A stretch of 64,000 bases of DNA from Solimonas terrae (GTDB taxonomy: Bacteria; Pseudomonadota; Gammaproteobacteria; Nevskiales; Nevskiaceae). The stretch covers positions 310,001 to 374,000 of the forward strand of contig NZ_JAAMOW010000002.1 in the NCBI RefSeq assembly GCF_011067135.1. The letters are read 5' to 3'. This document shows, piece by piece, positions 5,714 to 24,615 of the stretch; the stretch's first letter is position 1; each line of letters opens with the position of its first letter. The notes beneath the pieces were generated by a model. It was not told the DNA's origin. It ran no database searches and saw only the letters and a list, made by a program, of their open reading frames with translations. Both the position numbers and the translations under genes were made by a program.

Positions 5714-5727
5714 ATACAGCAATGTAT
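5714..5727. promoter_or_regulatory. Palindromic operator, site A of the 14-bp regulon
   Basis: ATACAGCAATGTAT lies in the divergent region between the GPH transporter (ATG 5583) and the TetR gene (ATG 5772). Both half-sites, ATACA and TGTAT, are perfect. The same spaced palindrome recurs before five other transcription units in this arm. TetR-family repressors such as AcrR are known to bind ATACA-type half-sites. Confidence 0.65.
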
Positions 5728-5771
5728 GTTGAAAGAGGACAGTGTCCTCAATTAAATCCGACCGAGCATCA

Positions 5772-6434
5772 ATGCCGACCACCGCTTCCGCAACGCCGCG
5801 ACCCGGCCCGCGACCCAGTACCAGCCGTCGGGAGATCGTCCAGTGCGCGATCCGCATGCTGGACCGCGACGGCGCCGAGGCCCTCACGTTTCGCGCCGTG
5901 GCGCGCGAACTCGACGTCGCGGTCGGCGCGCTCGGCCGCTATTTCAGGAATCTGGCGGACCTCGAAGACGAGGTCGCGGCGGCGCTGCTGTCCGGAATGC
6001 GTCCGCTCGACGACTCCAGCGCGGCCGGTCTGCGCGAGCAGTTGCTGCGGTTCGGGCTGGACTGGCTGGAAATCATGCGCAAGCACCCGTACCTGGCGAC
6101 GATCCTGGGCCCTGCCAGCGCGGAAGTGGTGGCCCGCCACGTCGCGCAGTGCGTGAAGGTGATGGTCGCCGCCGGCATCGAGTTCGAGCAGGCAATGGCC
6201 ATCTACTCGGTGGTTGCCAATCTCGCCTACGCCTGGGGCGTGCAAGGTGCGAGACAGAGCAAGCCGGGACTGCAGCCAGTGCTGGCGCAGGTGTTCTCCG
6301 AGCAGCTCGGCGGGCTCGCGCCGCAAATCGCGAAGCTCGCCGCCGCTCCGGGCACCGCGATCTACCGCCGCTGGCTGAAGCTTTGTATCGACGGTCTGCT
6401 GCCGCTGCAGCAGGCCCCACGCAAACGGCGCTGA
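5772..6434 (+). CDS. TetR/AcrR-family regulator 1
   Basis: Protein of 220 aa from the ATG at 5772; a GTG at 5742 would add ten residues. The N-terminal helix-turn-helix (residues about 18-65: SRREIVQCAIRML ... LTFRAVARELDVAVGALGRYF) is typical TetR. The C-terminal ligand domain is divergent, as usual. The palindrome at 5714-5727 sits 45 bp before the start, consistent with autoregulation and control of the divergent transporter. It is 38 bp upstream of the S9A peptidase gene on the same strand and could be the first gene of that operon. Whether this protein or TetR 2 (24576) reads the 14-bp sites elsewhere cannot be told from sequence. Confidence 0.85.
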   Translation: MPTTASATPRPGPRPSTSRREIVQCAIRMLDRDGAEALTFRAVARELDVAVGALGRYFRNLADLEDEVAAALLSGMRPLDDSSAAGLREQLLRFGLDWLEIMRKHPYLATILGPASAEVVARHVAQCVKVMVAAGIEFEQAMAIYSVVANLAYAWGVQGARQSKPGLQPVLAQVFSEQLGGLAPQIAKLAAAPGTAIYRRWLKLCIDGLLPLQQAPRKRR

Positions 6435-6472
6435 GCGCAGCCGCCCATTCATTCACGAGGAAGAGCTTGCCG

Positions 6473-8497
6473 ATGAACTATCCCCACGCCCGGATCCAGC
6501 CGACCGCCGTCAGTTATGGCCGTGTCCGTTACACCGACGACTATCAGTGGCTGGAGGAGGAAACGGCGGAAGCCCTGGCCTGGGAGGCAGAGCAGGATCG
6601 TCTGGCGCAGGACTGGCTGCGCAACACACCGGCCAGGGCGCGTGCGGAAGCGCTGATCGACGCGATGCCACGCATCAGCGCGGATTTCCCGAGCTACAGC
6701 GGCGGCCGCTGGTTCCAGAGGCGCACGCCGTCCGATCGGAAAATGCAGGTGCTCGAAGTCGCCGACTCGATCGATGGCCCCTGGCGCTGCATTGTCGATC
6801 TCAATCAGATGTCGGCCGGCCGCATGCTCGCCGCCGACAGCTTTGTGCCGTCGCCGGACGGACGCAAGCTGCTGTTCAGCCTCGGCGTCGACGGCAACGA
6901 GCTCGCCGAGCTGCGCGTGGTCGATGTCGACAACGGCACGATGCTGGTCGACTCGGTTCGCCAGATCCGCCCGTTCTTCGCCGTGTGGTCCGCGGACAGC
7001 AGCGGCTTCTACTACACCGCAATCGATCCTGCGGTGTCGATGGAAGAGATGAGGGTGTTCAGGCAGGTGCTGGGTGCGGCACCGGTGACGCGACCCGAGG
7101 CCTACGAGATGACCCACCCGATGACCTGGGCGAAGAGCGCCGGCGACGGCAGGCATCTGTTCATCATCGCCGATCATCTCAATCCGCGGCCGGACTACAT
7201 TCGCGACGACACCACCGGCGAGGCCTGGCGCCCTTTCCTCAAGGGCGAGACCGCCCTGTTCCGCGGCGAGATCATCGGTGACCGCTACTACGCCGTCACC
7301 GACGAGGGCGCGCCCTGCGGGCGGCTGGTCTCGATTCCGCTGGCGACGCCGACCGATCGCAGCACCTGGACGGAGCTGCTCGCCGGCTCGGAAAACGTGC
7401 TCGGCACGCTGTTCGCGGTCGACGGCCTGCTGGTGCTCGCCGATCTGGTCGACTGCTACTCGCGCATGCGGGTGTTCGACACCGAGGGCCGGCTCAAGGG
7501 CGAGATCGGGATGCCCGGCCATGGCTCGATGAGCGCGATCAATTTCGTGATCCCGAACATGCTGGACATGTTCGCCAAGGGCAGCAGCGGCGACGTGCTG
7601 TTTCCGTTCTCGACGGCGGCGCAGTCGCCGGCGCTGTACCGTGCCAATGTCCACACGCTGGAAGTGGAAGCGCTGACCCGGCCGCTGCTGAAGATCGACG
7701 CACGGTTCCAGGATCATTCGGCCATCAGCGCCGACGGCGCACGCGTGCCGTACAACGTCATCGCCCGCGCCGATGTCGACCTGACGCAGCCGCAGCCGAC
7801 GGCGATCTACGGCTACGGCGGCTTCGCGGTGGCGCTGGTGCCGTCGTGGGTCGGCACCTGGCTGGCGGCCTGGGTGCAGGCCGGCGGCGTGCTGGTGCTC
7901 GGCCACCTGCGCGGCGGCGGCGAACTGGGCCCGGAGATGTGGCATCAGGGTCGTTTGCTGAACAAGCAGAACAGCTTCAACGACGTCTATGCGATCGCCG
8001 AAGACCTGATAGCGCGGCGCATCACCACCGCCGCGCAGCTGGGCGTGGTCGGCGGTTCCAATGGTGGCGCGATGGCGGCCGCCGCGGTCGTGCAGCGTCC
8101 GGACCTGTTCCGTGCCGCCATCTCGCAGGTCCCGATCACCGACGCACTGGCGCGCGCACGCGACCCGATCACGATGGGTGCGACCATGGACTACGGCGAT
8201 CCGAACGATCCGGACCTGTCGGAAGCGCTGCTGGCCTGGAGTCCGTACCACAACATCAAGGACGGCACGGCCTATCCGTCGCTCCTGCTCGACGCCGGCA
8301 AGAGCGACGTGCGCTGTCCGCCCTGGCATGTGCGCAAGATGGCAGCGCGCATGCAGCCGGCAAACACGAGCTCGCACCCGATTCTGATGCGCGTGCGCGA
8401 AGGCGTCGGTCATGGCGCGGCGGATGTCGAAGGGCAACGCGCGCAAGGCAGCGACTGGCTGGGTTTCTTCATCGGCGAACTCGGCCTGGCGCCGTAG
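6473..8497 (+). CDS. Prolyl oligopeptidase family (S9A) serine peptidase
   Basis: Protein of 674 aa, the normal length for S9A prolyl oligopeptidases. The ATG at 6473 has a GAGGAAGAG stretch about 8 bases upstream. The N-terminal part (residues 1-75 and the WLEE motif) packs against a seven-bladed propeller (about 75-420), followed by the hydrolase domain. The triad is visible: Ser529 in GGSNGG, Asp612 in GKSDVRC and His647 in VGHG. The oxyanion region YGYGGF and the LRGGGELG loop are also present. No signal peptide is seen, so it should be cytosolic and act on short peptides up to about 30 residues, cutting after Pro or other N-alkyl residues. It probably forms an operon with the S9B peptidase 42 bp downstream. 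Family well supported; exact specificity unknown. Confidence 0.9.
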   Translation: MNYPHARIQPTAVSYGRVRYTDDYQWLEEETAEALAWEAEQDRLAQDWLRNTPARARAEALIDAMPRISADFPSYSGGRWFQRRTPSDRKMQVLEVADSIDGPWRCIVDLNQMSAGRMLAADSFVPSPDGRKLLFSLGVDGNELAELRVVDVDNGTMLVDSVRQIRPFFAVWSADSSGFYYTAIDPAVSMEEMRVFRQVLGAAPVTRPEAYEMTHPMTWAKSAGDGRHLFIIADHLNPRPDYIRDDTTGEAWRPFLKGETALFRGEIIGDRYYAVTDEGAPCGRLVSIPLATPTDRSTWTELLAGSENVLGTLFAVDGLLVLADLVDCYSRMRVFDTEGRLKGEIGMPGHGSMSAINFVIPNMLDMFAKGSSGDVLFPFSTAAQSPALYRANVHTLEVEALTRPLLKIDARFQDHSAISADGARVPYNVIARADVDLTQPQPTAIYGYGGFAVALVPSWVGTWLAAWVQAGGVLVLGHLRGGGELGPEMWHQGRLLNKQNSFNDVYAIAEDLIARRITTAAQLGVVGGSNGGAMAAAAVVQRPDLFRAAISQVPITDALARARDPITMGATMDYGDPNDPDLSEALLAWSPYHNIKDGTAYPSLLLDAGKSDVRCPPWHVRKMAARMQPANTSSHPILMRVREGVGHGAADVEGQRAQGSDWLGFFIGELGLAP

Positions 8498-8539
8498 CCG
8501 AGCAGCCGTTTCCATCGGAATCAGCGGAAGAATGTCATC

Positions 8540-10918
8540 GTGAGAATGCAGGAGCGTTATGCCGGCGCCGAGAAGCTGCTGGCGCCGGTGGCCGCCGGCA
8601 AGCTGAAAAACACGGCACCGGTCGCACGCTGGATCGATAACACCGATGCCTGCTGGTACCGGCGGCATCAGGCCGACGGACACGAATGGGTGATCGTCGA
8701 TGCGGTGTCGGGCGCGCGCCGCGCGGCCTTCGATCATCGTCGCCTGGCCGCGTCGCTGACCGCGCTCGGTCATCCGTCCGATGCCGGCAGGCTGGGCATC
8801 GAAGTCACGAGCGTGACGCTCGATCGCGTCGAGTTCACGTTCGAGCACAGGCGCTATCGCTGGTCGGACGGCAGCGGCGAGCCGAGCCTGCTCGGCGAGG
8901 TCGAAGCGGCACACGGACCGTCGCGGTCGCCGGACGGCAAGTGGTTGCTGGGCCAGCGCGACGGCAACCTCTGGCTGGCGCAGGCCGGCGGTGCGCCGCA
9001 GCAGATCACGCACGACGGCACGCCGGACGACGGCTATGCGATCTATCACGGCAACTACCGCGCCGGCTACATCACGCGCAGCCGTGTCGACGCCAGGGAT
9101 CAGGCGGCCGGCATCGTCTGGGCGCCGGACAGCAGCAAGCTGATCGTCTGGCGCGTCGATCAGCGCCACGTCGAAGCGTATCCGATGGTCGAAACGGCGC
9201 CGCGCGACGGCAGCTTCCGGCCGAAGCTGCATCTGCCGCGCATGCCGCTGACGGGCGAGGCGACGCCGACCATACGCTGGCTGTGTCTCGATCTGGCCAG
9301 CCGCCGACTGACGCCGCTGCAGTTGCCGGACGATCAGCTGCATCTGCACCAGGACTGGGAGGCCGTGCGCAAATGGATGTGGAGCCCGGACTGCACGCAC
9401 GCCTGGGCGGTGATGTTCGGTGCCGATCAGAAGACGGCATCGCTGCTCGACATCGATCTGGCCAGCGGTGCGGCGCGCGTGGTTGTTGCGGAAACCGACG
9501 AGCCGCGTGTCGAGCTGAACACGACTTCGTACAGCCCGGTCGCGGTCGATGTCATCGGCGATCTCGAACAGGTGGTCTGGTACAGCCACCGCTCCGGCTG
9601 GGGCCATCTGTACCGTTACGACGGCAGGACCGGGCAGCTGCTCAATGCGATCACCAGCGGCGCGTGGCTGGTGCGTGATCTGATCGACGTCGACCGGCGC
9701 AGCGGGCGCGTGCTGTTCACGGCCTCCGGTCGCGAGGGCGGCAATCCGTATCTGCGCTCGCTGTACGCGGTGAATCTGGACGGCAGCGGCCTGCGGCGGC
9801 TGACGCCGGCGGGTGTCGATGCCGACATCAATCCCGGCCTGTCGGCGATCTCGAAGACCACCGAGTTCATTCGCCAGCTGTCACCGAGCGGTCGGCATCT
9901 GCTGTACACGCGCTCGACGGTTTCGCAGCCGCCGCAAACCGTCATCGTGCGGCTCGCGGACGGCCACGAAACGCTGATCGAGCAAGCCGATGTCTCGGCG
10001 CTGCTCGCCGACGGTTATGTGCCGCCGGAGGAATTCGTCACGCTCGCGGCCGACGGCAAGACCGAAATCCACGGCCTGCTGTACCGGCCGGCGGTGCTGC
10101 CGGCCGATGGCAGGGCGCCGGTCATCGTCGCCCAGTACGCCAGCCCGCTGATGGCGGCCTGTCCGCGCACGTACGTGGGCGCTGTCGTCGGTCCCGGGCA
10201 ATGGATTTCGCCGGCTGCCTTTGCCGCGCTGGGCTGCGCGGTGATCGCGCTCGATGCGCGCGGCACGACCAGCCGCAACCGGGCGTTCGCGACGGCCGGG
10301 CAGGGCAGGCTGAATCTGATCGGCATGGACGATTACGTCGCCGCCATCACGCAACTCGGCGAACGCCACCGCTGGCTCGACACGCGTCGCGTCGGCATCC
10401 AGGGCGGCTCCTACGGCGGCTTTGCGGTGATCCGCGCGATGCTGGAATTCCCGGAGGTCTTCACGGTCGGCGTGTCCGGTGTGCCGATGTGCACCGTGCA
10501 CGGCATCTATCCGGATTATCACTGGACCGGCTGGCACGGCGCGCCGGACTACGGCGACGGCCGCAGCGAGCGCCCCGGTGCGACGGCGCGGCCGCAGAAC
10601 TACGCGTCGCTGGATGCCACCGAGCAGATCGGAAAGCTCAAGGGTCCGCTGCTGGTCATGGCCGGCGAGCTGGACGAGAACTGCCCGCTGCCGCCGATCA
10701 TGCAGATGTATGCGGCAGCCGTGGAGGCCGACGCGCCGATGGATCTGATCGTGATGCCGGGCTGCAGCCACCAGACCGTGATCCGCACGCGTTACACCTT
10801 CCGCAAGGTCATGGATCATTTCTGCCGTCATCTGCTCGGCAAGGCACCGCCGGCGAAGTTCCGCTTCAGCGTCCTGCCGCAGCGGCCCGAGCCGGACGAT
10901 CGCGCGACGGCGTGGTAG
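8540..10918 (+). CDS. Dipeptidyl-peptidase IV-type (S9B) serine peptidase
   Basis: Protein of 792 aa from the GTG at 8540 (an ATG two codons later is equally possible). The propeller covers residues about 80-540. The C-terminal alpha/beta-hydrolase has Ser624 in GGSYGG, Asp712 in GELDENC and His744 in CSHQT, the standard order of S9 peptidases. In DPP-IV enzymes an N-terminal Glu-Glu pair binds the free amino end of the substrate; I do not see a clear DPP-IV-type pair, so dipeptide release is not certain. No secretion signal is evident. It follows the S9A peptidase and precedes the amidohydrolase on the same strand; the three together look like a peptide-dismantling set. Confidence 0.87.
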   Translation: MRMQERYAGAEKLLAPVAAGKLKNTAPVARWIDNTDACWYRRHQADGHEWVIVDAVSGARRAAFDHRRLAASLTALGHPSDAGRLGIEVTSVTLDRVEFTFEHRRYRWSDGSGEPSLLGEVEAAHGPSRSPDGKWLLGQRDGNLWLAQAGGAPQQITHDGTPDDGYAIYHGNYRAGYITRSRVDARDQAAGIVWAPDSSKLIVWRVDQRHVEAYPMVETAPRDGSFRPKLHLPRMPLTGEATPTIRWLCLDLASRRLTPLQLPDDQLHLHQDWEAVRKWMWSPDCTHAWAVMFGADQKTASLLDIDLASGAARVVVAETDEPRVELNTTSYSPVAVDVIGDLEQVVWYSHRSGWGHLYRYDGRTGQLLNAITSGAWLVRDLIDVDRRSGRVLFTASGREGGNPYLRSLYAVNLDGSGLRRLTPAGVDADINPGLSAISKTTEFIRQLSPSGRHLLYTRSTVSQPPQTVIVRLADGHETLIEQADVSALLADGYVPPEEFVTLAADGKTEIHGLLYRPAVLPADGRAPVIVAQYASPLMAACPRTYVGAVVGPGQWISPAAFAALGCAVIALDARGTTSRNRAFATAGQGRLNLIGMDDYVAAITQLGERHRWLDTRRVGIQGGSYGGFAVIRAMLEFPEVFTVGVSGVPMCTVHGIYPDYHWTGWHGAPDYGDGRSERPGATARPQNYASLDATEQIGKLKGPLLVMAGELDENCPLPPIMQMYAAAVEADAPMDLIVMPGCSHQTVIRTRYTFRKVMDHFCRHLLGKAPPAKFRFSVLPQRPEPDDRATAW

Positions 10919-11006: not shown

Positions 11007-12245
11007 ATGAGTATCAAGATTCTGCGCAACAGCCTGATCTTCGACGGTCGCAGCGACGTATTGATCGAAGGCGGCAGCATCGTCATCGAGAACGACCGGA
11101 TTCGCGAGATCGCGGCCGGTGATGCACGCATCGATGGCGCGACCGTGATCGACATGGGCGGCCGCTTCGTCATGCCGGGTCTGCTCGACGTGCATTTCCA
11201 CGTCTACGGCATCTCGCTGAACATGCATCTGATCGACAACATGACCCTTCCCCTGAAGGTCGCGTACGCCGCGCGCCTGCTGAAGGGAACCCTGCATCGC
11301 GGCTACACCACGGTTCGCGATCCGGCCGGCGGCGAGATCGGCCTGCATCTCGCCATCCACCAGGGCCTCATGGAAGGGCCGCGCCTGTACTACGGCGGCA
11401 AGGCGCTGTCGCAGACCGGCGGCCACGGCGACATGCGACCTGCGCACCAGCTCGACGGGCCCTGCGGCTGCAGCGCGAACAGCACCTTCGCCGAGATCGT
11501 CGACGGCGTCGAGAACGTGCGCGTGTTCTGCCGCAACGAGCTGCGCAAGGGCGCCGACCACATCAAGGTCTTCATTTCCGGTGGCGTCGCGTCGCCCACC
11601 GATCCGATCTGGATGCCGCAGTACACCGACGAGGAAATCGAAGCCGCCGTTCACGAAGCCGGCACGCGCCGCAAATACGTGGTTGCACACTGCCACACCG
11701 ATGACGGCGCACGTCGCTGTCTGAAGACCGGCATCCGCTCGATCGACCACTGCACGATGATCACCGAGGACACGGCGAAACTGATCGCGGCCGCCGACGG
11801 CAAGGCCTATGCCGTGCCGACGATCGCCGTGCAGGAACAGATCATGCGCCATGGCCCCGAACTGGGCGTGTTCGGCGAGAGCCTGGAGAAGATCAGGATC
11901 GCGCACGCCGCCGCCTACCGCTCGATGGAATTCCTGAAGCGCGCCGGCGCGCGGGTCGGCATGGGCACCGATCTGTTCGAGGAGCGCTTTCATCCGATGC
12001 AGAACGAGGAGTTCAGCTTCCGTGCCGACATCTTCGAGCCGATCGACCTGCTGCGTTCGGCGACCAGCGTCAATGCCGAGATCATGCAGAAGCGCGGGCA
12101 GGTCGGCAGCATCGAGCCGGGCGCCTATGCGGACCTCATCGCCATCGACCGCAATCCACTGCGGGACATTCACGTCATGGCGCGGCCCGACGAGCACTTC
12201 TCGATGATCATGAAAGGCGGCGAGTTCGTGCGCAATCGCCTCTAG
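11007..12245 (+). CDS. Metal-dependent amidohydrolase (imidazolonepropionase/Xaa-Pro dipeptidase-like)
   Basis: Protein of 412 aa with the full binuclear metal set of the amidohydrolase superfamily: His63 and His65 in DVHFHVYG, the bridging carboxylated Lys187 in HIKVFISGG, His228 in VAHCH, His248 in SIDHC and Asp322 in MGTD. This layout matches cytosolic amidohydrolases including Xaa-Pro and N-acyl dipeptidases and imidazolonepropionase-like enzymes. Next to two S9 peptidases it could cleave the final N-alkyl dipeptide or a related amide; this is inference. The 88 bp before it hold no clear ATACA/TGTAT site, so it is likely read through from the peptidase genes. A broken relative lies at 23.6-23.9 kb. 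Confidence 0.85.
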   Translation: MSIKILRNSLIFDGRSDVLIEGGSIVIENDRIREIAAGDARIDGATVIDMGGRFVMPGLLDVHFHVYGISLNMHLIDNMTLPLKVAYAARLLKGTLHRGYTTVRDPAGGEIGLHLAIHQGLMEGPRLYYGGKALSQTGGHGDMRPAHQLDGPCGCSANSTFAEIVDGVENVRVFCRNELRKGADHIKVFISGGVASPTDPIWMPQYTDEEIEAAVHEAGTRRKYVVAHCHTDDGARRCLKTGIRSIDHCTMITEDTAKLIAAADGKAYAVPTIAVQEQIMRHGPELGVFGESLEKIRIAHAAAYRSMEFLKRAGARVGMGTDLFEERFHPMQNEEFSFRADIFEPIDLLRSATSVNAEIMQKRGQVGSIEPGAYADLIAIDRNPLRDIHVMARPDEHFSMIMKGGEFVRNRL

Positions 12246-12356: not shown

Positions 12357-12370
12357 ATACAGAACTGTAT
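12357..12370. promoter_or_regulatory. Palindromic operator, site B (perfect), over a -10 box
   Basis: ATACAGAACTGTAT is a perfect inverted repeat (ATACAG-AA-CTGTAT). Its right half overlaps a consensus TATAAT at 12368-12373 that would drive the small ORF and LuxR-type gene downstream. Overlap with a -10 box is the classic arrangement for repression. No good -35 is visible at the matching distance. Confidence 0.7.
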
Positions 12371-12440: not shown

Positions 12441-12683
12441 ATGAGCATGCCGGAACAGGAATTTGTCTTCGCGGTTCGCGGCTCGGCGCCGTCGGGCACG
12501 CCTGCCGACGTGACGGCGGCGATGTGCGGCCGCGGACTCGATCGCCGCGACCCTGCAACGTCCTGCGAGGCCGCTGTCGCGCCGACCTTCGCGACGCTGC
12601 GGCCGGCGACATCGCGAGCCGACCGCGAGTCCGGGCCGCGGCAGAACGTCGCGCAAACGGCGGCGCGTCCGCAGCGGGCCTGA
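12441..12683 (+). CDS. Hypothetical small ORF, possibly the 5' part of the following regulator
   Basis: An 80-aa frame (or 78 aa from the ATG at 12447) begins right after GGAAGAGG and ends six bases before the GTG proposed for the LuxR-type gene. Third codon positions are strongly G/C, as in real genes of this genome. I do not recognise the product. Two readings are possible: a separate small protein, or the N-terminal part of the LuxR-type regulator cut off by a frameshift near 12680. The frame has no domain I can name. Confidence 0.3.
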   Translation: MSMPEQEFVFAVRGSAPSGTPADVTAAMCGRGLDRRDPATSCEAAVAPTFATLRPATSRADRESGPRQNVAQTAARPQRA

Positions 12684-12688
12684 ACGCC

Positions 12689-12973
12689 GTGGATACCGGA
12701 CTGGCTTGTACGTGCCTGGACGCGCGCACCGAGCTCGACAGCGAGCGCGGCGCCGACGCCGGTCCCGCGGCCCCGGCCTTCACGCCGCGCGAAATGCAGG
12801 TGCTGTATCTGGTCGCCTGCGGCCGTTCGTGCAAGCAGATGGCCGCGGCGCTGCACATCTCCATGTGCACCGTCGATGTCTACCGCCGACGGTTGTTCGC
12901 CAGGCTCGGCGTGCGCAATGCCGTTGCCCTGCAGCGCCACGCCATTCTGTCCGGCTGGCTGAGGCTGACGTGA
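12689..12973 (+). CDS. Small LuxR/GerE-type helix-turn-helix protein
   Basis: From a GTG at 12689 the product is 94 aa; the same frame stays open further upstream to about 12524. Residues about 33-90 form a GerE/LuxR HTH: FTPREMQVLYLVACG, then CKQMAAALHISMCTVDVYRRRLFARLGVRN. No receiver or autoinducer-binding domain is present in frame, so either it is a minimal DNA-binding regulator or its N-terminal domain was lost by a frameshift (see the ORF at 12441). Site B lies upstream and site C downstream, so it belongs to the TetR-controlled cluster and may tune the formate dehydrogenase-like gene that follows. Confidence 0.55.
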   Translation: MDTGLACTCLDARTELDSERGADAGPAAPAFTPREMQVLYLVACGRSCKQMAAALHISMCTVDVYRRRLFARLGVRNAVALQRHAILSGWLRLT

Positions 12974-13059: not shown

Positions 13060-13073
13060 ATACATGAATGTAT
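13060..13073. promoter_or_regulatory. Palindromic operator, site C (perfect)
   Basis: ATACATGAATGTAT is a perfect inverted repeat (ATACAT-GA-ATGTAT), 127 bp before the molybdoenzyme gene. A TATAGT at 13071-13076 overlaps its right half and could be the -10 box. It has the same spacing as sites A, B, E and F. Confidence 0.68.
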
Positions 13074-15445: not shown

Positions 15446-15449
<4 letters not shown>

Positions 15450-15688
15450 GCGGGGTCGATCTGCAAGGCCTGCTGCAGCTGATCGCCGCGGACGACGGCA
15501 CCTCGCTTCCTCGCGCGGCAAGGAAACTCAGGCTCGGTCAGAGCCAGTTGCTGCGGGCGCTGACCGCGCTGGGCGGCCATGGCGCGGCAGGAGCAGCTGC
15601 GTTGATCGAGGTCAGGGGCGACAGTCCGCAACGGCTTTACCTGACGCCCGCCGGACGCGCGCATCTGGAGCGTGACGATGAAACATGA
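15446..15688 (+). CDS. Small winged-helix-like protein between molybdoenzyme and fdhD
   Basis: Protein of 80 aa that starts in an ATGA overlap with the molybdoenzyme stop and runs 11 bp into fdhD, so it is translationally tied to both. The sequence (LQGLLQLIAADDGTSLPRAA ... LRLGQSQLLRAL) reads like a short helix-turn-helix followed by a wing (LIEVRGDSPQRLYLTPAGRAHL), resembling MarR/LysR-type DNA-binding folds. Too small for a ligand domain. It could be a local regulator or a maturation helper; the context favours a formate dehydrogenase link. I cannot name a family. Confidence 0.6.
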
Positions 15689-16583: not shown

Positions 16584-16597
16584 ATACGTTTGTGCAT
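16584..16597. promoter_or_regulatory. Weak palindromic operator, site D, before soxB
   Basis: ATACGTTTGTGCAT matches the ATACA-N4-TGTAT pattern at eight of ten half-site positions and lies 34 bp before soxB. A TATTAT at 16580-16585 may be a -10 box. It is weaker than the other sites and could be chance, but position and spacing fit. Confidence 0.4.
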
Positions 16598-16631: not shown

Positions 16632-17873
16632 ATGCGCTATTCGGCCCTCACCCTTGCTCGCAATGCCCTGACCGGCCATCGGCAGTGGCAACCCATGTGG
16701 CGGGACGCCCAGCCGCAGCCGCACTACGACGTGGTGATCGTCGGCGGCGGCGGCCACGGTCTGGCGACGGCCTACTACCTGGCGAAGCATCACGGCGTGA
16801 AGCGCGTCGCGGTGCTGGAAAAGGCCTGGATCGGCGGCGGCAACACCGGCCGCAACACGACCATCGTGCGCTCGAACTATTTCCTGCCCGAGTCTTCGGC
16901 GTTCTACGAGTTCTCGGTGCAGCTGTACGAGAAGCTCAGCCGCGAGCTGAACTACAACATCATGTTCTCGCAGCGCGGCATGATCACGCTCGCGCATTCG
17001 CGGCACGACGAGGAAACGCTGCGCCGTTCGTTCAACGCGATGTCGCTGAACGGGGTCGATTGCGAGTGGCTGGAACCGGACGAGGTGTTCGAGCGCATGC
17101 CGCTCTACAACCGCGCCGGGCGCTTCCCGGTGCGTGCCGGTCTCGATCAGCCACGCGCCGGTTCGGCGCGACACGATGCGGTCGCCTGGGGCTACGCCCG
17201 CGCGGCGTCCGATCTCGGCGTCGACATCATCCAGAACTGTGAAGTCACCGGCTTCCTCGGTGGCGACGGCCATGTCGGCGGCGTGTCGACGAGCCGCGGC
17301 AACATCGGTGCGGACAAGGTCTGCCTTGCCGTAGCCGGGCACACCAGCCAGATCGCCGCGAAAGCCGGGCTGCAACTGCCGATCACCAGCTACGCCTTGC
17401 AGGCTTTCGTGTCCGAACCGGTCAAGCCGGTGTTCGACACCGTCGTGCTGTCGCCGGCCACCGGCGTCTATCTGAGCCAGACCGACAAGGGCGAGCTGGT
17501 GATCGGCGGCGCGCTCGACCTGTATCCGTCGTACGCGCAGCGCGGCAATTTCCATACGGTCGAAAACGTCGTCGCCGGCATGCTCGAGATGTTTCCCGCG
17601 TTCTCGCGTCTGCGTCTGATGCGCCAGTGGGCCGGCATCGTCGATGTGGTTCGCGACTCCTCGCCGATCCTCGGGCCGAGTCCGGTCGACAACCTCTATC
17701 TGAACTGCGGATTCGGCACCGGCGGCTTCAAGGCGATTCCGGCCGGCGGCTGGACCATGGCGCATACGCTGGCGACCGGCGATGTCCATCCGCTGATCAA
17801 ACCCTTTGCCCTCGAACGTTTCCAGAACGGTGCGCTGATCGATGAAGCGGCCGCAGCCGGGATTGCCCACTGA
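16632..17873 (+). CDS. soxB: Sarcosine oxidase beta subunit
   Basis: Protein of 413 aa from the ATG at 16632 (MRYSALTLARNALTGHRQW, the family's usual beginning; a GTG at 16590 is an unlikely longer start). It is the flavoprotein subunit that oxidises sarcosine to glycine plus a one-carbon unit and H2O2. The N-terminal dinucleotide fold (VVIVGGGGHGLATAYYLA, about residues 33-50) binds FAD. ARHDAVAWGYARAA contains His181, matching the His that holds covalent FMN in heterotetrameric sarcosine oxidases. It leads the soxBDAG operon and is joined to soxD by a one-base stop/start overlap (TGATG). Cytosolic. Confidence 0.93.
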   Translation: MRYSALTLARNALTGHRQWQPMWRDAQPQPHYDVVIVGGGGHGLATAYYLAKHHGVKRVAVLEKAWIGGGNTGRNTTIVRSNYFLPESSAFYEFSVQLYEKLSRELNYNIMFSQRGMITLAHSRHDEETLRRSFNAMSLNGVDCEWLEPDEVFERMPLYNRAGRFPVRAGLDQPRAGSARHDAVAWGYARAASDLGVDIIQNCEVTGFLGGDGHVGGVSTSRGNIGADKVCLAVAGHTSQIAAKAGLQLPITSYALQAFVSEPVKPVFDTVVLSPATGVYLSQTDKGELVIGGALDLYPSYAQRGNFHTVENVVAGMLEMFPAFSRLRLMRQWAGIVDVVRDSSPILGPSPVDNLYLNCGFGTGGFKAIPAGGWTMAHTLATGDVHPLIKPFALERFQNGALIDEAAAAGIAH

Positions 17874-18160
17874 TGCTGCTGATCTCCTGTCCTTTTTGCG
17901 GCCCGCGCGACGAGACCGAATTCCGTTGCGGCGGCCAGAGCCACATCCAGCGGCCCGGTCCGCACACCGCGGTCAGTGATGCCGACTGGGGCGCGTACCT
18001 GTATACGCGCGACAACCCCAAAGGCTGGCACTTCGAGCGCTGGCTGCATGCCGGTGGTTGCCGGCAGTGGTTCAACCTGGCGCGCAGCACCGTCACGCAC
18101 GAAATTCGCGCGGTCTACGCGATGGGCGAGGCGGCGCCGGTGATCGGGGAGTCGTCATGA
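17873..18160 (+). CDS. soxD: Sarcosine oxidase delta subunit
   Basis: Protein of 95 aa, the usual size for the zinc-binding delta subunit of heterotetrameric sarcosine oxidase. The four expected zinc ligands are present: Cys6, Cys9, His59 and Cys63. The stretch DWGAYLYTRDNPKG is characteristic of the family. The gene overlaps soxB and soxA at both ends (ATGA with soxA), as expected for a complex made in fixed proportions. A structural, non-catalytic subunit. Confidence 0.92.
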   Translation: MLLISCPFCGPRDETEFRCGGQSHIQRPGPHTAVSDADWGAYLYTRDNPKGWHFERWLHAGGCRQWFNLARSTVTHEIRAVYAMGEAAPVIGESS

Positions 18161-21120
18161 GCCAGCCCCTGCGTCTGCCCGAAGGAGGTCGCATCGATCG
18201 CAGCCAGCCGCTGCGCTTCGAATTCGATGGTCGTGCCTACATCGGCTACGCCGGCGACACGCTGGCCTCGGCACTGATCGCCAACGGCGTGCGCGTCACC
18301 GGCCGCAGCTTCAAGTACCACCGTCCGCGCGGGACGATGGCGGCCGGCTTCGAGGAAGCCAACAGCATCGTGCAACTCGGGCGCGCGTCGCGCACCGAGC
18401 CGAACCTGCGCGCCACGCAGATCGAACTGAGCGAAGGCCTGCAGGCACGCGCGGTCAATTGCTGGCCGAGCGCGCGTTTCGACCTGTTCTCGTTCTTCCG
18501 GCTGTTCAAGCCGTTCTGGCCGGCCGGCTTCTACTACAAGACTTTCATGGCGCCGAGCTGGCACCTGTGGGAGCCGGCGATCCGCCACGGTGCCGGCCTC
18601 GGTGTCGCGCCGCGCGTTGCCGACCCGGACGTCTACGAAAAGCGCTTTGCCGGCGCCGATGTGATCGTCGTCGGCGCCGGCCCCAGCGGGATCGCCGCCG
18701 CACTGGCGGCAGCGCGGGCCGGTGCGTCCGTGATTCTGCTCGACGACAAGCCGGACCTGGGCGGCTCGTTGCTGTACGAAGCCGGCGCGATCGAGGGGCT
18801 TGCGGCGGCGCAGTGGAAAGACGCGCAGCTGCAGGCGCTGGGCGCGCTGCCGAACGTGCAGCTGATGACGCGGACCACGGCGTTCGGCTACTACGACCAC
18901 AACCACCTGCTCGCCAACGAGCTGCTGCCGGGGTCCGCGCACGGCGCGCGCCAGCGGCTCTGGAAGATTCGCGGCAAGCGCATCGTCATGGCGACCGGCG
19001 CGCTGGAACGACCGCTGGTGTTTCCGAACAACGACCGGCCCGGCGTGATGCTGGCAGGCGCGGCGCGCCAGTACCTGCATCGCCATGCGGTGCTGCCGGG
19101 CCGGCGCATTGTCGTCGCCACCAACAACGACAGCGCCTACGAGGTCGCGATCGAGCTCAAGCAGGCGGGTGCCGACATCGCGTTGATTGCCGATACCCGG
19201 ACGATCGCCGACAGCACGCTCGCCGCGCAGGCGCGTGCGCTCGGCATCGAGGTCGCCGGCGGTCTGTCACCGACCGACACGCGTGGCAGCAAGAGCCTGC
19301 ACGCGGTTGAACTCCACGAGGTCGACGCACAGGGCCGCGTTAGACCGGGCAGCGCGCGGCGCGTGTCCGCCGACTCGCTGCTGGTGTCCGGTGGCTGGAA
19401 CCCGACCGTGCATCTGTTCTCGCAGTCCGGTGGCAGCCTGCGTTACGACGACGCGCAGAAGGCCTTTGTTCCGGCCCGCTATGCGCAGCCGGGATTCATG
19501 GTGGGGGCCGCCGCCGGCATCGCGCAACGTGCGGATGCGGTCGCGTCGGCACGCGTCGCCGGCGCTGAAGCCGCTGCCGGCCGCAGCGGCAGCGTGGCGC
19601 CGGTGGGCGAGGGCGCCAGCGGACAGAGCTTCTGGTCGGTCGACGTCACGCCGCTGGGTCGCGCGGTGTCGAAGTCCTGGGTCGATCTCGCCAGCGACTC
19701 GACCGAATCCGATCTGCGCCTCGCCGCGCGCGAGAATTTCATTTCCGTGGAGCTGTTCAAGCGCTACACCACGACCGGCATGATGACCGACCAGGGCAAG
19801 ACCTCGAACGTCAATGCGATCGGCATCCTCGGTGGCGTCATCGGCAAGGCGCCCGGTGAAGTCGGCACCACGCGTTTCCGGCCACCGTTCAATCCGGTCA
19901 GCTTCGGCGCGATCGCCGGCCGCAATGTCGGTGCGCACTACCGGCCGCTGCGGCGTCTGCCGACGCACGACGCGCAGCTCGCGCTCGGCGCGCATGTCGA
20001 GGACTACGGCGCCTGGCTGCGGCCCTCGCACTATCCGCGCGCCGGCGAGTCGGAGACGGTGACGATCGCGCGCGAGGTGCACGCCGTGCGCTCGGCGGTC
20101 GGCCTGCTCGACTATTCGCCGCTCGGCAAGATTCTGGTGTCCGGGCCGGACGCCGCGACCTTCCTGCAGCGCATGTACGTCAACAACGTGCAGACGCTGA
20201 AAGTCGGCGCCTGCCGCTACGGCCTGATGCTCGGCGAGGACGGCATCGTCAAGGATGACGGCGTGCTCGTGCGCTGGAGCGAGGATTCGTTCGTCGTCGG
20301 CACCACCAGCGGGCAGGCCGATCGCATCGTCGACTGGCTGGAGGAATGGCTGCAGTGTGAGTGGACCGGACTCGACGTCACGGTCGAATCGATCACCACG
20401 CAATGGTCGACGCTGATGCTCGCCGGACCGCGGGCGCGCGAGCTGCTGATGCGTCTGGGTACGGGCATCGATCTGTCCGCCGACGCGTTTCCGCACATGA
20501 CGGCGCGCGAAGGCCTGCTCGGCAAGGTGCCGTTGCGCATCTCGCGCGTGAGCTTCACCGGCGAGCTGAGTTTCGAGATCAGCGTGCCCTGGAATTGCGG
20601 GCGCGCGCTGTGGGATCGGCTGCTCGGCCTCGGCGCGGACCTCGGCATCCAGCCGTTCGGCCTCGAATCGCTGCTGCTGATGCGTGTCGAAAAGGGCTTT
20701 CTGCACGTCGGGTCCGATACCGACGGCCTGACGCTGCCGCAGGATGTCGGCTTCGCCGCGATCATCGACAAGAAGAAGGAAGACTTCGTCGGCCGTCGTT
20801 CGACGATGACGCCGGACGCGTTGCGCCAGGATCGCCGGCAACTGGTCGGCCTGTTGCCGGTCGACGGTCGCACGCTGCTGCCTTGCGGCGCGCACATCGT
20901 CGGCGAGGATTTCGTGAAGGCGCCGGTGCGTTCGCAGGGCTGGGTCACTTCGTCGGTGTACAGCCCGACGCTGAACAAGCCGGTGGCGATGGGCCTGGTC
21001 GAGCGCGGGCTGGAACGGCTCGGCCAGCGCGTGAAGATCTTCGACGACGGCCGCTGCATCGATGCGACGATCACCAGCATGGCGTTCTACGACGCCGACG
21101 GCGCGCGCCTGAGGATGTGA
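18157..21120 (+). CDS. soxA: Sarcosine oxidase alpha subunit
   Basis: Protein of 987 aa, full length for the family. Order: a ferredoxin-like N-terminal domain (residues about 1-100, with GDTLASALIANGVR), an NAD-binding fold (VIVVGAGPSGIAAALAAA, about 169-186), a second dinucleotide segment, then a C-terminal GcvT-like folate-binding domain (about 600-987, beginning near the FRPPFNPVSFGAIAG linker). The GcvT part captures the methyl group as 5,10-methylene-tetrahydrofolate. The start overlaps soxD by ATGA. It hands its product to FolD and PurU, encoded just downstream. Confidence 0.94.
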   Translation: MSQPLRLPEGGRIDRSQPLRFEFDGRAYIGYAGDTLASALIANGVRVTGRSFKYHRPRGTMAAGFEEANSIVQLGRASRTEPNLRATQIELSEGLQARAVNCWPSARFDLFSFFRLFKPFWPAGFYYKTFMAPSWHLWEPAIRHGAGLGVAPRVADPDVYEKRFAGADVIVVGAGPSGIAAALAAARAGASVILLDDKPDLGGSLLYEAGAIEGLAAAQWKDAQLQALGALPNVQLMTRTTAFGYYDHNHLLANELLPGSAHGARQRLWKIRGKRIVMATGALERPLVFPNNDRPGVMLAGAARQYLHRHAVLPGRRIVVATNNDSAYEVAIELKQAGADIALIADTRTIADSTLAAQARALGIEVAGGLSPTDTRGSKSLHAVELHEVDAQGRVRPGSARRVSADSLLVSGGWNPTVHLFSQSGGSLRYDDAQKAFVPARYAQPGFMVGAAAGIAQRADAVASARVAGAEAAAGRSGSVAPVGEGASGQSFWSVDVTPLGRAVSKSWVDLASDSTESDLRLAARENFISVELFKRYTTTGMMTDQGKTSNVNAIGILGGVIGKAPGEVGTTRFRPPFNPVSFGAIAGRNVGAHYRPLRRLPTHDAQLALGAHVEDYGAWLRPSHYPRAGESETVTIAREVHAVRSAVGLLDYSPLGKILVSGPDAATFLQRMYVNNVQTLKVGACRYGLMLGEDGIVKDDGVLVRWSEDSFVVGTTSGQADRIVDWLEEWLQCEWTGLDVTVESITTQWSTLMLAGPRARELLMRLGTGIDLSADAFPHMTAREGLLGKVPLRISRVSFTGELSFEISVPWNCGRALWDRLLGLGADLGIQPFGLESLLLMRVEKGFLHVGSDTDGLTLPQDVGFAAIIDKKKEDFVGRRSTMTPDALRQDRRQLVGLLPVDGRTLLPCGAHIVGEDFVKAPVRSQGWVTSSVYSPTLNKPVAMGLVERGLERLGQRVKIFDDGRCIDATITSMAFYDADGARLRM

Positions 21121-21122
21121 AC

Positions 21123-21686
21123 ATGAGCGATCAACAGGCCGTTTTTCCGGTACCGCAATCGCCGTTCGGCACGCAGCCGGGCGCCACGGCAAGAACCTTC
21201 GTCGATGCCGCGCATGTACGCATCGTCGAGGAGCCGTTCCTGCGGCTGATCAGCGTGCGCTTCTCCAGACAGGTCGAGCTGGCAGCGGTCGCCGAGCGCC
21301 TGCAGTTGTCGGCCACGCAGGCGCCGAACAGCTATCTCGCCAGCGCGGGGCGCGAGGCGGCGCGTTACGAGCCGCGCGCCTGGCTGCTGATCGGCGGGCC
21401 GGACGACGCGCTGCCATCGGCGGTCGCCGGCAGTCTGGTGACGGACCTGTCGGCGCGCCTCGCTTCGTTCCGCATCGGCGGCACGGCGGCGACGCGCATC
21501 CTGGGTTCGTCGACCAGTGTCTGCCCGGCGCCGGGGGGCTTCGTGCGCACGCTGTTCGCGGAAAGCTATCCGGTGCTGCTGCAGTGTCTGGGCGTGCAGG
21601 ACTTCCGCCTGCTGGTCGATGTCAGTCTCGCATCGGCGTGCGCGGACTGGCTGACGGACGCCGCAACCCTGTCGACGCAAGCCTAG
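21123..21686 (+). CDS. soxG: Sarcosine oxidase gamma subunit
   Basis: Protein of 187 aa starting two bases after the soxA stop. SoxG proteins share sequence with the N-terminal part of GcvT-like folds and complete the alpha-beta-gamma-delta tetramer. Recognisable are the C-terminal stretch with CPAPGGFVRTLFAES and the DFRLLVDVSLA ending. Assigned mainly from position as the fourth gene of soxBDAG, size and these stretches. The next gene begins 82 bp later, behind its own operator site, so the operon may end here or continue into purU. Confidence 0.85.
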   Translation: MSDQQAVFPVPQSPFGTQPGATARTFVDAAHVRIVEEPFLRLISVRFSRQVELAAVAERLQLSATQAPNSYLASAGREAARYEPRAWLLIGGPDDALPSAVAGSLVTDLSARLASFRIGGTAATRILGSSTSVCPAPGGFVRTLFAESYPVLLQCLGVQDFRLLVDVSLASACADWLTDAATLSTQA

Positions 21687-21723: not shown

Positions 21724-21737
21724 ATACAGATATGAAT
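21724..21737. promoter_or_regulatory. Palindromic operator, site E, before purU
   Basis: ATACAGATATGAAT matches ATACA-N4-TGTAT at nine of ten half-site positions. It lies 31 bp before the purU start in the 82-bp soxG-purU gap, so purU-folD may have their own regulated promoter in addition to read-through. Confidence 0.58.
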
Positions 21738-21768: not shown

Positions 21769-22629
21769 ATGAGTGCTGATCACCACGACCTCGTCCTGAC
21801 CTTTCTGAGCCCGGACCGGCCGGGCATCCTCGCGGCAGTGACCGCCTGCGTGTTCAAGGCCGGCTGCGACATTCGCGATGCGCAGCAGTTCGGCGACGAC
21901 GCCAGCAGGACCTTCTTCGTGCGCATGCATCTTTCGGCGCCGGTTTCGACCAGCGAAAGCGCGCTGTCGGAGGCGATCGCGACGGTCGCCGGCCAGCTCG
22001 ATCTGCGCTGGAGCCTGCGCCCGTGGCAGCGCAAGCTGCGCAGTCTGATCCTGGTGTCGAAGTACGGGCACTGCCTCAACGATCTGCTGCATCGCTGGCG
22101 TACCGGTCTGCTGCATACCGACATCGTCGGCGTGGTCTCCAACCACGAGGACTTCCGCAGCCTGACGCAGTGGTACGGGCTGCCGTTTCACCATCTGCCG
22201 GTCACCCCGGACACCAAGGCGGCGCAGGAAGCGAAAATCCTCGAACTCGTCGAATCGACGCAGACCGACCTGGTCGTGCTCGCGCGCTACATGCAGGTGC
22301 TGTCGGAAAACCTGTGCCGGCAGCTCGACGGCCGCTGCATCAACATCCATCACTCGTTCCTGCCCAGCTTCAAGGGCGCCAGCCCGTACAAGCGCGCCTA
22401 CGAGCGCGGCGTGAAACTGGTCGGTGCCACCGCGCACTACGTGACCAGCGATCTCGACGAAGGTCCGATCATCGAACAGGACGTGGTGCGCGTGAATCAC
22501 GCGATGAATGCCGACGAGATGACCAATCTCGGCCGCGAGGTCGAAGCGCGCGTGCTGGCACGCGCGGTGCGCTGGCATGTCGAGCATCGCGTCATCCTCA
22601 ACGCCGGCAAGACCATCGTCTTTCAATGA
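21769..22629 (+). CDS. purU: Formyltetrahydrofolate deformylase
   Basis: Protein of 286 aa from the ATG at 21769 ([19 protein letters not shown]); an ATG nine codons earlier is less likely. PurU hydrolyses 10-formyl-tetrahydrofolate to formate and tetrahydrofolate. An N-terminal ACT domain (residues about 6-85, [11 protein letters not shown]) precedes the formyltransferase-like domain with [14 protein letters not shown] and the Asp-containing [12 protein letters not shown], which carry the active-site Asn, His and Asp. In sarcosine catabolic operons PurU regenerates free folate from the carbon captured by SoxA, releasing formate that the molybdoenzyme at 13.2 kb could oxidise. Confidence 0.94.
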
Positions 22630-22660
22630 ACGAACGCCGAGTGCAAGCGGAGCCATCGCG

Positions 22661-23566
22661 ATGAGCGCGCGCCTGCTGGACGGCAAGGCGATCGCCGCCG
22701 AGGTGCAGGCGGGCGTCTCGGCCCGCATCGGACAGCGCGTCGCCGGCGGTCTGCGGCGGCCGTGTCTGGCAACCGTGATCGTCGGCGACGACGCGGCGTC
22801 GGCGGTCTATGTGCGCAACAAGATCATCGCCTGCGAGCGCGTCGGCATCCGGCCGTTGCCGCATCATCTGCCGGCGACCACGACGCAGGCGCAACTGCTG
22901 GCGCTGGTCGATGCGCTGAACGACGACGACACGGTCGACGGCATCCTCGTGCAGCTGCCGCTGCCGGCTGCGCTCGATGCGACGGCGGTGATCGAACGCA
23001 TCCATCCGGACAAGGATGTCGACGGCTTTCATCCGTTCAATGTCGGGCGCCTGATGCAGCGCATCCCGCGCCTGCGGCCCTGCACGCCGCTCGGCGTGAT
23101 CGAAATGCTGCGGCGGTCCGGCGAAACCTTCCATGGCCGACGCGCCGTGGTCGTCGGCGCGTCCAATATCGTCGGCCGGCCGATGGCGATGGAACTGCTG
23201 CTGGCCGGCGCCATCGTCACGGTGACGCATCGCTTCACCGCCGATCTGGCCGGTGATGTCGCGGCCGGCGAAATCCTCGTCGTCGCGGTCGGCAAGCCCG
23301 GCCTCGTCAAGGGCGAGTGGGTACGTCCCGGCGCCACGGTCATCGACGTCGGCATCAATCGCGGTGCGGACGGCAAACTGCGTGGCGACGTCGACTTCGC
23401 CGCCGCCAGCGAGCGCGCCGCGCTGATCACGCCGGTGCCGGGCGGCGTGGGGCCGATGACGGTGGCGATGCTGATGCGCAACACGCTGCAGGCGATGGAG
23501 CTGCATCAGTCGGCGTTTCCGTCCACCGCGGTCGAACCGGGTCCGCTGCTGCATTCCGTTGCGTGA
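22661..23566 (+). CDS. folD: Methylene-tetrahydrofolate dehydrogenase/cyclohydrolase
   Basis: Protein of 301 aa from the ATG at 22661 (GCGGAG about 8 bases upstream). It is bifunctional: it oxidises 5,10-methylene-THF with NADP and hydrolyses methenyl-THF to 10-formyl-THF. Visible are [14 protein letters not shown] (active-site Lys), [11 protein letters not shown], the D-rich [16 protein letters not shown], the NADP loop [15 protein letters not shown] and the closing [15 protein letters not shown] signature. It sits between SoxA (which makes methylene-THF) and PurU (which uses formyl-THF) in the pathway. Probably a dedicated second copy beside a housekeeping folD elsewhere (inference). Confidence 0.94.
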
Positions 23567-23915: not shown

Positions 23916-23922
23916 GCGAACG

Positions 23923-24576
23923 CTACTTCGTCGTGCGCAATGCGGCGAGGTACTTCTCGCCGCCGAGCACTTCGAGATAGGTGTCGAGATTGCTTTCGCG
24001 ATCGCTCAAGGCTTCCTCGACGCCGATCGAGTAATAGCCGATCTGGTGCCAGTACATGACGCGTGCGCGGATGATGGCGTCCTTGGGTTTGTAGCCGAAG
24101 CCGGCGTACAGGCGACGGATGGCCTCGATGCGCTCTTCGTCGACGGCGTGAACGACCCTGGCGACCGGTTCCGAGATGCGCGCCCACTCGCGAATCGCCA
24201 TGTCGTACTGTGGGTCGAAGCCGGATTCGTGGACCAGGTTGCTGGTCATCTCGCGGAAACTCTTCAGCGTCGACGCGATGGTCGAGGTGTCCAGCGATGC
24301 CGGCACGAAGCGATTGGTCTGCTGCCAGTCCTTGAGCAGCAGTTCCAGCATGCTGTGATGGCTCTTGAAGTGGTGGTAGAAGCCGCCACGCGTCACGTTC
24401 AGGCGCTTGGCCAGGCGATCCGCCTTGACCGCACCGATGCCTTCCTCGATCAGGATCACCTTGGCGGCGTTGAGCCAGCCTTCGAGCGTGACCTTGATAT
24501 TGCCCTTGCGACCGGGCGAGGGGATGGTCAGCTTGCGCTTCTGGCGGCTGGTGGAAGTGAGGCGTTTGGTGGCCAT
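23923..24576 (-). CDS. TetR-family regulator 2
   Basis: Protein of 217 aa from the ATG at 24576 (MATKRLTSTSR). A basic N-terminal tail (residues 1-28) precedes the HTH: VTLEGWLNAAKVILIEEG, then VKADRLAKRLNVTRGGFYHHFKSHHSML. A ligand domain of about 150 residues follows. Operator site F with an overlapping TATAAT lies 19-40 bp upstream, so autorepression is likely. It closes the catabolic arm and is the best candidate for reading sites A-F, because its own promoter has the most elaborate operator; TetR 1 at 5772 is the alternative. The effector is unknown, perhaps sarcosine, a folate or the peptide substrate. Confidence 0.88.
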   Translation of the reverse strand: MATKRLTSTSRQKRKLTIPSPGRKGNIKVTLEGWLNAAKVILIEEGIGAVKADRLAKRLNVTRGGFYHHFKSHHSMLELLLKDWQQTNRFVPASLDTSTIASTLKSFREMTSNLVHESGFDPQYDMAIREWARISEPVARVVHAVDEERIEAIRRLYAGFGYKPKDAIIRARVMYWHQIGYYSIGVEEALSDRESNLDTYLEVLGGEKYLAALRTTK

Positions 24577-24594
24577 GGCGTCCGCGATCGTGGT

Positions 24595-24615
24595 ATTCAG
24601 AACTGTATTATACAG
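24595..24615. promoter_or_regulatory. Operator site F with overlapping -10 box of TetR 2
   Basis: ATTCAGAACTGTAT (24595-24608) matches the regulon palindrome at nine of ten positions. It overlaps a second perfect palindrome, CTGTATTATACAG (24603-24615), whose minus-strand reading contains TATAAT. This compound site lies directly before the TetR 2 start and also faces the open frame running rightwards. Confidence 0.65.

What the first reader, a model, noticed from the sequence alone, without database searches (positions are those of the whole stretch)
5714..24615. One 14-bp palindrome marks six promoters of a peptide / sarcosine / C1 regulon
ATACA-N4-TGTAT sites stand before the GPH transporter/TetR 1 (5714), the LuxR-type gene (12357, perfect), the formate dehydrogenase-like gene (13060, perfect), soxB (16584, weak), purU (21724) and TetR 2 (24595). 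Sites B, C and F overlap -10-like boxes. All lie in gene-start gaps, none was noticed inside a gene, and A/T-rich words this long are rare in such G+C-rich DNA. TetR repressors such as AcrR use ATACA half-sites. I infer a single repressor, TetR 2 or TetR 1, that joins peptidases, sarcosine oxidase and formate oxidation into one inducible unit.
Basis: partly seen in the sequence, partly recalled or inferred. Interest (0 to 1): 0.75.

Follow-up and report, generated by a model that had tools for sequence, protein, structure and literature searches.

The report
TetR-controlled sarcosine and peptide regulon
One short palindromic DNA word sits at the start of six neighbouring genes or operons and is very probably the binding site of a single repressor that switches on, together, the breakdown of peptides and of the methylated amino acid sarcosine.

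Summary
ATACA-N4-TGTAT occurs exactly three times in the window (0 in 100 shuffles) and four times in the 4.42-Mb genome; the fourth copy lies between a paralogous amidohydrolase and another TetR gene. A matrix built only from other genomes ranks sites A-F as the six best positions of the window. In Solimonas the homologous cluster has sites before GPH, a LuxR-type gene, fdh, soxB, purU and tetR2.

The regulator is most likely TetR 2, not TetR 1. TetR 2 orthologs occur in 5 of 85 genomes of the order, and each of the five has 2-4 exact sites. In Oceanococcus they stand before kbl-tdh, a peptidase, an amino-acid dehydrogenase and, with one mismatch, tetR2. Among 29 distant TetR 2 homologs, 7 of 7 with recognition helix R-G-[SG]-F-Y have an exact site, 0 of 22 without it. 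A sister clade reading R-T-S-F-Y has TGTnCA-N4-TGTCA instead.

AcrR is a poor analogue: its spacing is N8. Binding, repression and the effector are inferred. The bare word also occurs in 34 of 80 TetR2-less genomes. I found no description of this regulon in the papers searched. New member of a known kind.

The parts
5714..5727 (.). site A, exact, between GPH transporter and tetR1
   Evidence: same gap has an exact site in G028 and G040
12357..12370 (.). site B, exact, before the LuxR-type gene
   Evidence: Solimonas has ATGCAGTTATGCAT in the gap at the same place
13060..13073 (.). site C, exact, before the FdhF-like gene
   Evidence: weak site (10.8) on the fdh side of the Solimonas fdh|soxB gap
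16584..16597 (.). site D, two mismatches, before soxB
   Evidence: rank 6 in the window; Solimonas soxB side 13.8
21724..21737 (.). site E, one mismatch, before purU
   Evidence: Solimonas purU site in register
24595..24608 (.). site F, one mismatch, before tetR2; with TGTAT at 24604-24608 part of TGTATTATACA
   Evidence: related sites before tetR2 in Solimonas and Oceanococcus
23923..24576 (-). TetR 2, proposed regulator
   Evidence: Pfam TetR_N 37.9 bits, cut-off 24; distribution and helix
5772..6434 (+). TetR 1, local regulator or target
   Evidence: Pfam TetR_N 31.7 bits, cut-off 24
5735..5749 (.). GAGGACAGTGTCCTC, perfect palindrome, possible operator of TetR 1
   Evidence: function inferred
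4192..5583 (-). GPH/MFS-type transporter
   Evidence: Pfam MFS_2 201 bits; NCBIfam gph 158.5 bits, below its cut-off 231
6473..8497 (+). prolyl-oligopeptidase-type S9 peptidase
   Evidence: Pfam Peptidase_S9 and S9_N
8540..10918 (+). DPP-IV-type S9 peptidase
   Evidence: Pfam DPPIV_N and Peptidase_S9
11007..12245 (+). amidohydrolase related to Xaa-Pro dipeptidases
   Evidence: Pfam Amidohydro_1; NCBIfam Xaa-Pro dipeptidase 223.5 bits, below its cut-off 500
12524..12973 (+). LuxR-type HTH gene, start uncertain
   Evidence: ORF; GerE 52.6 bits
13200..15449 (+). FdhF/YdeP-type molybdoenzyme, putative formate dehydrogenase
   Evidence: TIGR01701 942 bits, cut-off 582
15446..15688 (+). small ORF between fdhF-like and fdhD
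   Evidence: no Pfam match
15678..16454 (+). fdhD
   Evidence: Pfam FdhD-NarQ 230 bits
16632..17873 (+). soxB, sarcosine oxidase beta
   Evidence: TIGR01373 649 bits, cut-off 529
17873..18160 (+). soxD-like ORF
   Evidence: reading; no family search
18157..21120 (+). soxA, sarcosine oxidase alpha
   Evidence: Pfam SO_alpha_A3, GCV_T, Fer2_4
21123..21686 (+). soxG-like ORF
   Evidence: reading; no family search
21769..22629 (+). purU, formyl-THF deformylase
   Evidence: TIGR00655 331.7 bits, cut-off 286
22661..23566 (+). folD
   Evidence: NF008058 428 bits, cut-off 355

Best explanation
ATACA-N4-TGTAT is the operator of TetR 2, a member of a proteobacterial TetR subfamily often found beside genes for N-methylated amino acids or quaternary amines. 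A TetR 2 dimer (inferred) sits on each site, where -10-like hexamers overlap one half-site or the other, and blocks transcription (inferred from position and family, not shown). When an effector binds, probably sarcosine, glycine or a related small amino acid (inferred from gene content), the promoters open together: GPH, tetR1 with the peptidase/amidohydrolase run behind it, the LuxR-type gene, fdh-fdhD, soxBDAG, purU-folD and tetR2 itself. The genes fit one route (established knowledge of the families): peptides to amino acids and sarcosine; sarcosine oxidase gives glycine and methylene-THF; FolD and PurU release formate; the FdhF-type enzyme oxidises it to CO2.
For: Four exact sites in 4.42 Mb, three here. 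Solimonas cluster: sites in the gaps before GPH, LuxR-type gene, fdh, soxB, purU, tetR2 with a matrix that excludes Solimonas; shuffled gaps reach the score in 0-15 of 2000. TetR 2 in 5 of 85 genomes; in the three kin groups that hold it, the 5 carriers have 15 of 18 exact sites over 19 genomes. Oceanococcus has no TetR 3 relative at E 1e-8 but has sites at amino-acid and peptidase genes and at tetR2. Distant homologs: 8 exact sites in 33 loci, mirror word 0, all 8 in the gap at the TetR2-like gene or its operon; helix R-G-[SG]-F-Y 7 of 7, others 0 of 22; sister clade R-T-S-F-Y has TGTnCA-N4-TGTCA in 9 of 10 rows.
Against: No binding or expression data. The exact word also occurs in 34 of 80 TetR2-less genomes of the order, up to 4-5 copies in G021 and G063. 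Six of 14 own-genome sites with up to one mismatch have no evident link, some inside genes. With one mismatch allowed the distant loci give 12 matches against 8 for the mirror word. Roseovarius L206, in the clade and beside soxBDAG, has no site, nor has its operon leader. D is weak alone. The dehydrogenase genes of Solimonas carry no site. Genomes compared are related, so the probabilities are indicative.
Confidence: 0.77

Rival explanations
1. The sites belong to the TetR genes of the peptide loci (TetR 1 here, TetR 3-type elsewhere), each binding a like operator at its own locus; TetR 2 is only a target.
For: Site A adjoins tetR1. The five TetR 3-type genes at 58-100% identity in G000, G028 and G040 each have an exact site within about 250 bp. 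TetR 3-side sites share a further tail TGTATGTACATTACA.
Against: TetR 1 and TetR 3 are not close to each other (34% over part). More distant TetR 3 paralogs L127 and L128 have no site. Oceanococcus has sites but no TetR 3 relative at E 1e-8. Distant TetR 2 homologs carry the word.
Confidence: 0.12
2. TetR 2 binds the sites but activates, or acts as a mixed regulator, rather than repressing.
For: -35 hexamers at 17-bp spacing are poor at nearly all sites (0-3 of 6 matches, one exception with 5).
Against: Sites overlap -10-like hexamers and lie 14-48 bp before many start codons; TetR proteins are mostly repressors (recalled).
Confidence: 0.1
3. The word is part of a promoter class read by a sigma factor, not an operator.
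For: TATAAT/TATAGT hexamers overlap B and C.
Against: Palindromic, only N4 spacing is enriched, four exact copies in the genome, and it follows TetR 2 and its recognition helix.
Confidence: 0.03

Closest known systems
AcrR of E. coli (TetR family)
   Same: TetR-type repressor; half-sites with ATACA/TGTAT
   Different: 24-bp site with N8 between the halves (PMC10597343, passages), controls efflux; an N8 site of this kind lies beside an acrR-like gene in Oceanococcus as a separate system
AmtR of Corynebacterium glutamicum
   Same: TetR-family regulator of creatine-utilisation genes (PMC8864220, title and abstract start in listings)
   Different: described there as a central nitrogen regulator; its operator was not compared here
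TetR genes beside hpbA (N-methyl-L-proline N-demethylase) on alphaproteobacterial plasmids
   Same: same subfamily in the tree, same CA-N4-TG core
   Different: helix SRTSFYWFF and word TGTnCA-N4-TGTCA; no description found in the held papers
fdhF/cg0617/cg0616 of C. glutamicum
   Same: FdhF needs the products of cg0616 and cg0617 (PMC4609165, passage); here too a small ORF lies beside fdhF-like and fdhD genes
   Different: here the genes carry the TetR 2 word and sit with sarcosine oxidase; that cg0616 is fdhD is recalled

Membership tests
TetR family of regulators | TetR_N DNA-binding domain above Pfam cut-off | tested here: met
   TetR 2 37.9 bits, cut-off 24
TetR family of regulators | all-helical TetR fold | tested here: met
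   model pLDDT 82; best PDB matches are TetR-type proteins, with modest TM-scores
TetR family of regulators | binds a palindromic operator and releases it on ligand binding | not testable with these tools
   needs EMSA/footprinting
AcrR-type operator | ATACA and TGTAT halves 8 bp apart | tested here: not met
   only N4 is enriched, N8 has none; AcrR site
TetR 2 subfamily (defined here) | one clade with the exact-site homologs | tested here: met
   13-row clade, support 92/86, not starred by the program
TetR 2 subfamily (defined here) | helix R-G-[SG]-F-Y with ATACA-N4-TGTAT at the gene or operon | tested here: met
   7 of 7 distant homologs, 0 of 22 without it
Heterotetrameric sarcosine oxidase | beta subunit above cut-off with alpha, delta, gamma genes | tested here: met
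   beta, alpha domains; delta and gamma read by eye only
Caulobacter-type Xaa-Pro dipeptidase (NF051886) | score above the curated cut-off | tested here: not met
   223.5 bits against 500; a related amidohydrolase, not a named member

The most novel reading that the evidence does not exclude
TetR 2 founds an undescribed proteobacterial repressor subfamily for N-methylated and glycine-family amino acids, in which a change in the recognition helix (R-G-[SG] to R-T-S) goes with a change of operator from ATACA-N4-TGTAT to TGTnCA-N4-TGTCA. In this lineage it was recruited to run a pathway for N-methylated, sarcosine-containing peptides: uptake, S9 peptidases, an imidodipeptidase-like amidohydrolase, sarcosine oxidase and C1 oxidation as one unit.
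Probability: 0.3. Interest if true: 0.7.

Novelty: new member of a known kind. Interest (0 to 1): 0.55.

Why it matters
It names, from sequence alone, the regulator, operator and targets of a whole catabolic unit, and suggests a helix-to-operator rule for a TetR subfamily with matches in 348 of 72,556 plasmid records, of which I found no account in the held library. If right, tetR2 with its operator is also a candidate sensor for sarcosine or a related amino acid.

Tried and rejected
TetR 1 as the common regulator: rejected, no close ortholog where the sites are conserved (short 40% matches over 75 residues exist in G064 and G070). AcrR-type operator: rejected on spacing. LuxR-type gene as a conserved partner: the Solimonas gene at the same place also has a GerE domain but no significant BLAST similarity (best E 2.1). 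Counting the bare word across the order as proof: rejected, 34 of 80 TetR2-less genomes have it. The kbl gene of G060 and G067 as a TetR2-less control: weaker than I first thought, since there kbl follows tdh directly; the G060 stretch, which includes the gap before tdh, has nothing nearer than 3 mismatches, and in G067 the start of the operon lies outside the stretch. The dehydrogenase gene in G060 and G067 is the cleaner control: nothing nearer than 4 mismatches. Class-wide ortholog search: 3 of 369 genomes matched at 1e-40, the own one and two at about 1e-42 (at most 8 candidates scored per genome, so misses are possible). The genome-contig scan used short peptide patterns and finds close relatives only. 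PHROGs, PADLOC, Rfam and viral contigs were not searched. Literature: ten searches, lists capped, uninformative; seen beyond listings: passages of PMC10597343 and PMC4609165. Recalled, from no call: that TetR proteins are mostly repressors, and the sarcosine-to-formate chemistry.
Full report
CHECK OF THE OBSERVATION. The word ATACA-N4-TGTAT is found exactly at 5714, 12357 and 13060, with none in 100 shuffles; 21724 and 24595 have one mismatch and 16584 two. The genome (4.42 Mb, 20 contigs) has four exact copies; the fourth, C11:178508 (L001), lies between a second amidohydrolase and a TetR gene followed by what reads as a TonB receptor. With up to one mismatch there are 14 sites: 5 in the finding; 3 at related genes (L001; L007 between a TetR and a DPP-IV-type S9 peptidase; L005 between a TonB receptor and a flavin amine oxidase); 6 with no evident link, some inside genes. 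Spacing is specific: of gaps 0-12 only N4 stands out. The second locus (L016) also holds a soxB paralog above the TIGR01373 cut-off next to its amidohydrolase.

INDEPENDENT MATRIX. A matrix from 10 sites of other genomes ranks the six sites as the best six positions of the 64-kb window, all in gaps; the seventh scores 10.6, and the score of D (13.7) is reached 0.23 times per 64 kb in 30 simulated sequences of the same dinucleotide make-up. The training sites were gathered with the same word, so exact sites rank high by construction; the ranks of D, E and F are the informative part.

FOOTPRINT IN SOLIMONAS. Orthologs of TetR 2 lie in Solimonas sp. SE-A11 (G028) and BWSM_106 (G040), in a cluster whose compared proteins are about 65-90% identical to those here, TetR 2 56-57%. 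With a matrix that excludes Solimonas, sites appear before GPH (25.2 and 22.5), purU (20.8), the LuxR-type gene (15.9), soxB (13.8), fdh (10.8) and tetR2 (13.1 and 10.4). Shuffling each of nine gaps reaches its best score in 0 to 15 of 2000 shuffles. Alignment puts the purU and tetR2 sites in register; the soxB and fdh sites share position but were not aligned with each other. The fdh|soxB gap was seen in G028 only.

WHICH REGULATOR. TetR 2 occurs in 5 of 85 genomes of the order. In the three kin groups that contain it (19 genomes) the 5 carriers hold 15 of 18 exact sites (counts; binomial 7e-7; without the own genus, 11 of 12 in 4 of 8 genomes, p = 0.003). These genomes are related and the word came from this genome, so the figures are indicative. 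The Oceanococcus-type genomes G064 and G070 (G070 is Oceanococcus sp. BWSM_70) have no TetR 3 relative at E 1e-8. Yet they have exact sites before kbl-tdh, an ELFV-type amino-acid dehydrogenase and a sensor kinase gene behind glnA (ntrB by position), and G070 before an M17 aminopeptidase; both have a one-mismatch site between tetR2 and a D-amino-acid dehydrogenase gene, and G064 one before an M3 peptidase. The dehydrogenase genes of their TetR2-less relatives G060 and G067 have nothing nearer than 4 mismatches. The kbl comparison is weaker, because there kbl follows tdh in an operon. With up to one mismatch against the mirrored word the counts are G028 16/2, G040 11/5, G064 23/5, G070 23/6; most of these sites were not linked to function, and some lie inside genes or belong to other systems, such as an N8 AcrR-like site.

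DISTANT FAMILY. TetR 2 has matches in 348 of 72,556 plasmid records; I fetched 27 regions, chosen by eye for diversity, and looked at six further contigs from genome searches. Neighbours include sarcosine oxidase genes (Shinella, Roseovarius), MttB with an FAD oxidoreductase (Leisingera, Mesorhizobium), MttB (Gemmobacter), hpbA (two Paracoccus, Thioclava), NADH:flavin oxidoreductase with or without proline racemase, and EutQ plus FAD oxidoreductase plus TRAP transporter (Paracoccus ferrooxidans, Tistrella). In two alphaproteobacterial contigs a gene with DAO and GCV_T domains, MttB and the TetR2-like gene are in a row, with ATACA-N4-TGTAC before the first. L200, L218, L223 and L224 had no such neighbour. 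Over all 33 loci (332,888 bases) there are 8 exact sites against 0 of the mirrored word, all 8 in the gap at the TetR2-like gene or its operon; with one mismatch included it is 12 against 8. In a 36-row tree (29 distant homologs, 4 TetR 2, 3 outgroups) the seven exact-site homologs fall with TetR 2 in one clade of 13 (support 92/86, just under the program's star). All seven have the helix R-G-[SG]-F-Y; of the 22 without it none has an exact site (Fisher 6e-7). They stem from about three or four lineages, so the true weight is less. The hpbA/OYE clade mostly reads SRTSFYWFF; 9 of its 10 rows have TGTnCA-N4-TGTCA within 200 bp before the TetR gene; of the 27 plasmid regions 11 have that word exactly (12 matches), mirror 0. 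Against: Roseovarius (TPGSFYWHF) and L223 (TKGSFYWHF) are in the TetR 2 clade without a site, and the leader of the Roseovarius sarcosine operon has none either. Four of the 33 loci (L204, L225, L226, L028) were not in the tree.

MECHANISM. Shown: sites, positions, conservation, covariation with the helix. Inferred: binding by TetR 2, repression, inducer. -10-like hexamers overlap the right half (B TATAAT, C TATAGT, GPH side of A TATTAT) or the left half (tetR2 TATAAT); which one is used is not known. The LuxR distance was taken to 12442, which may not be the gene start. A three-half-site form, TGTAT-N-ATACA-N4-TG at tetR2 here, recurs less exactly before tetR2 in Solimonas and Oceanococcus. 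The genes form one plausible route from peptides and sarcosine to CO2. The Oceanococcus targets (glycine C-acetyltransferase, threonine dehydrogenase, with serine ammonia-lyase behind tetR2) touch the same glycine node, which is why I propose a glycine-family effector.

NOVELTY. TetR-type catabolic repressors are well known; this subfamily, operator and regulon I did not find in the held papers. Most subscription papers are missing there, so this is not proof of absence.

Noticed in passing
window 5735-5749: Perfect 15-bp palindrome GAGGACAGTGTCCTC between site A and tetR1; possible own operator of TetR 1.
   Followed up: partly
L016 15803-17044: A second soxB above the TIGR01373 cut-off stands beside the second amidohydrolase; I saw no soxD, soxA or soxG among the genes called around it. 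The same pair occurs in Solimonas (L199).
   Followed up: partly
window 23580-23915: Between folD and tetR2 the reading frame resembles the C-terminal end of the amidohydrolase at 11007-12245, as if a remnant; seen by eye.
   Followed up: no
window 26000-28000: G+C falls to 48-50% against 65% overall, over a gene with a GGDEF domain (25661-27985).
   Followed up: no
L205, L208, L215, L216: A TetR2-like gene follows a nucleoside hydrolase gene with the fully palindromic ATACAGTACTGTAT in front; substrate unknown.
   Followed up: no
L001, L050, L054, L055: Sites beside TetR 3-type genes share a further tail TGTATGTACATTACA, perhaps a second regulator's site.
   Followed up: no
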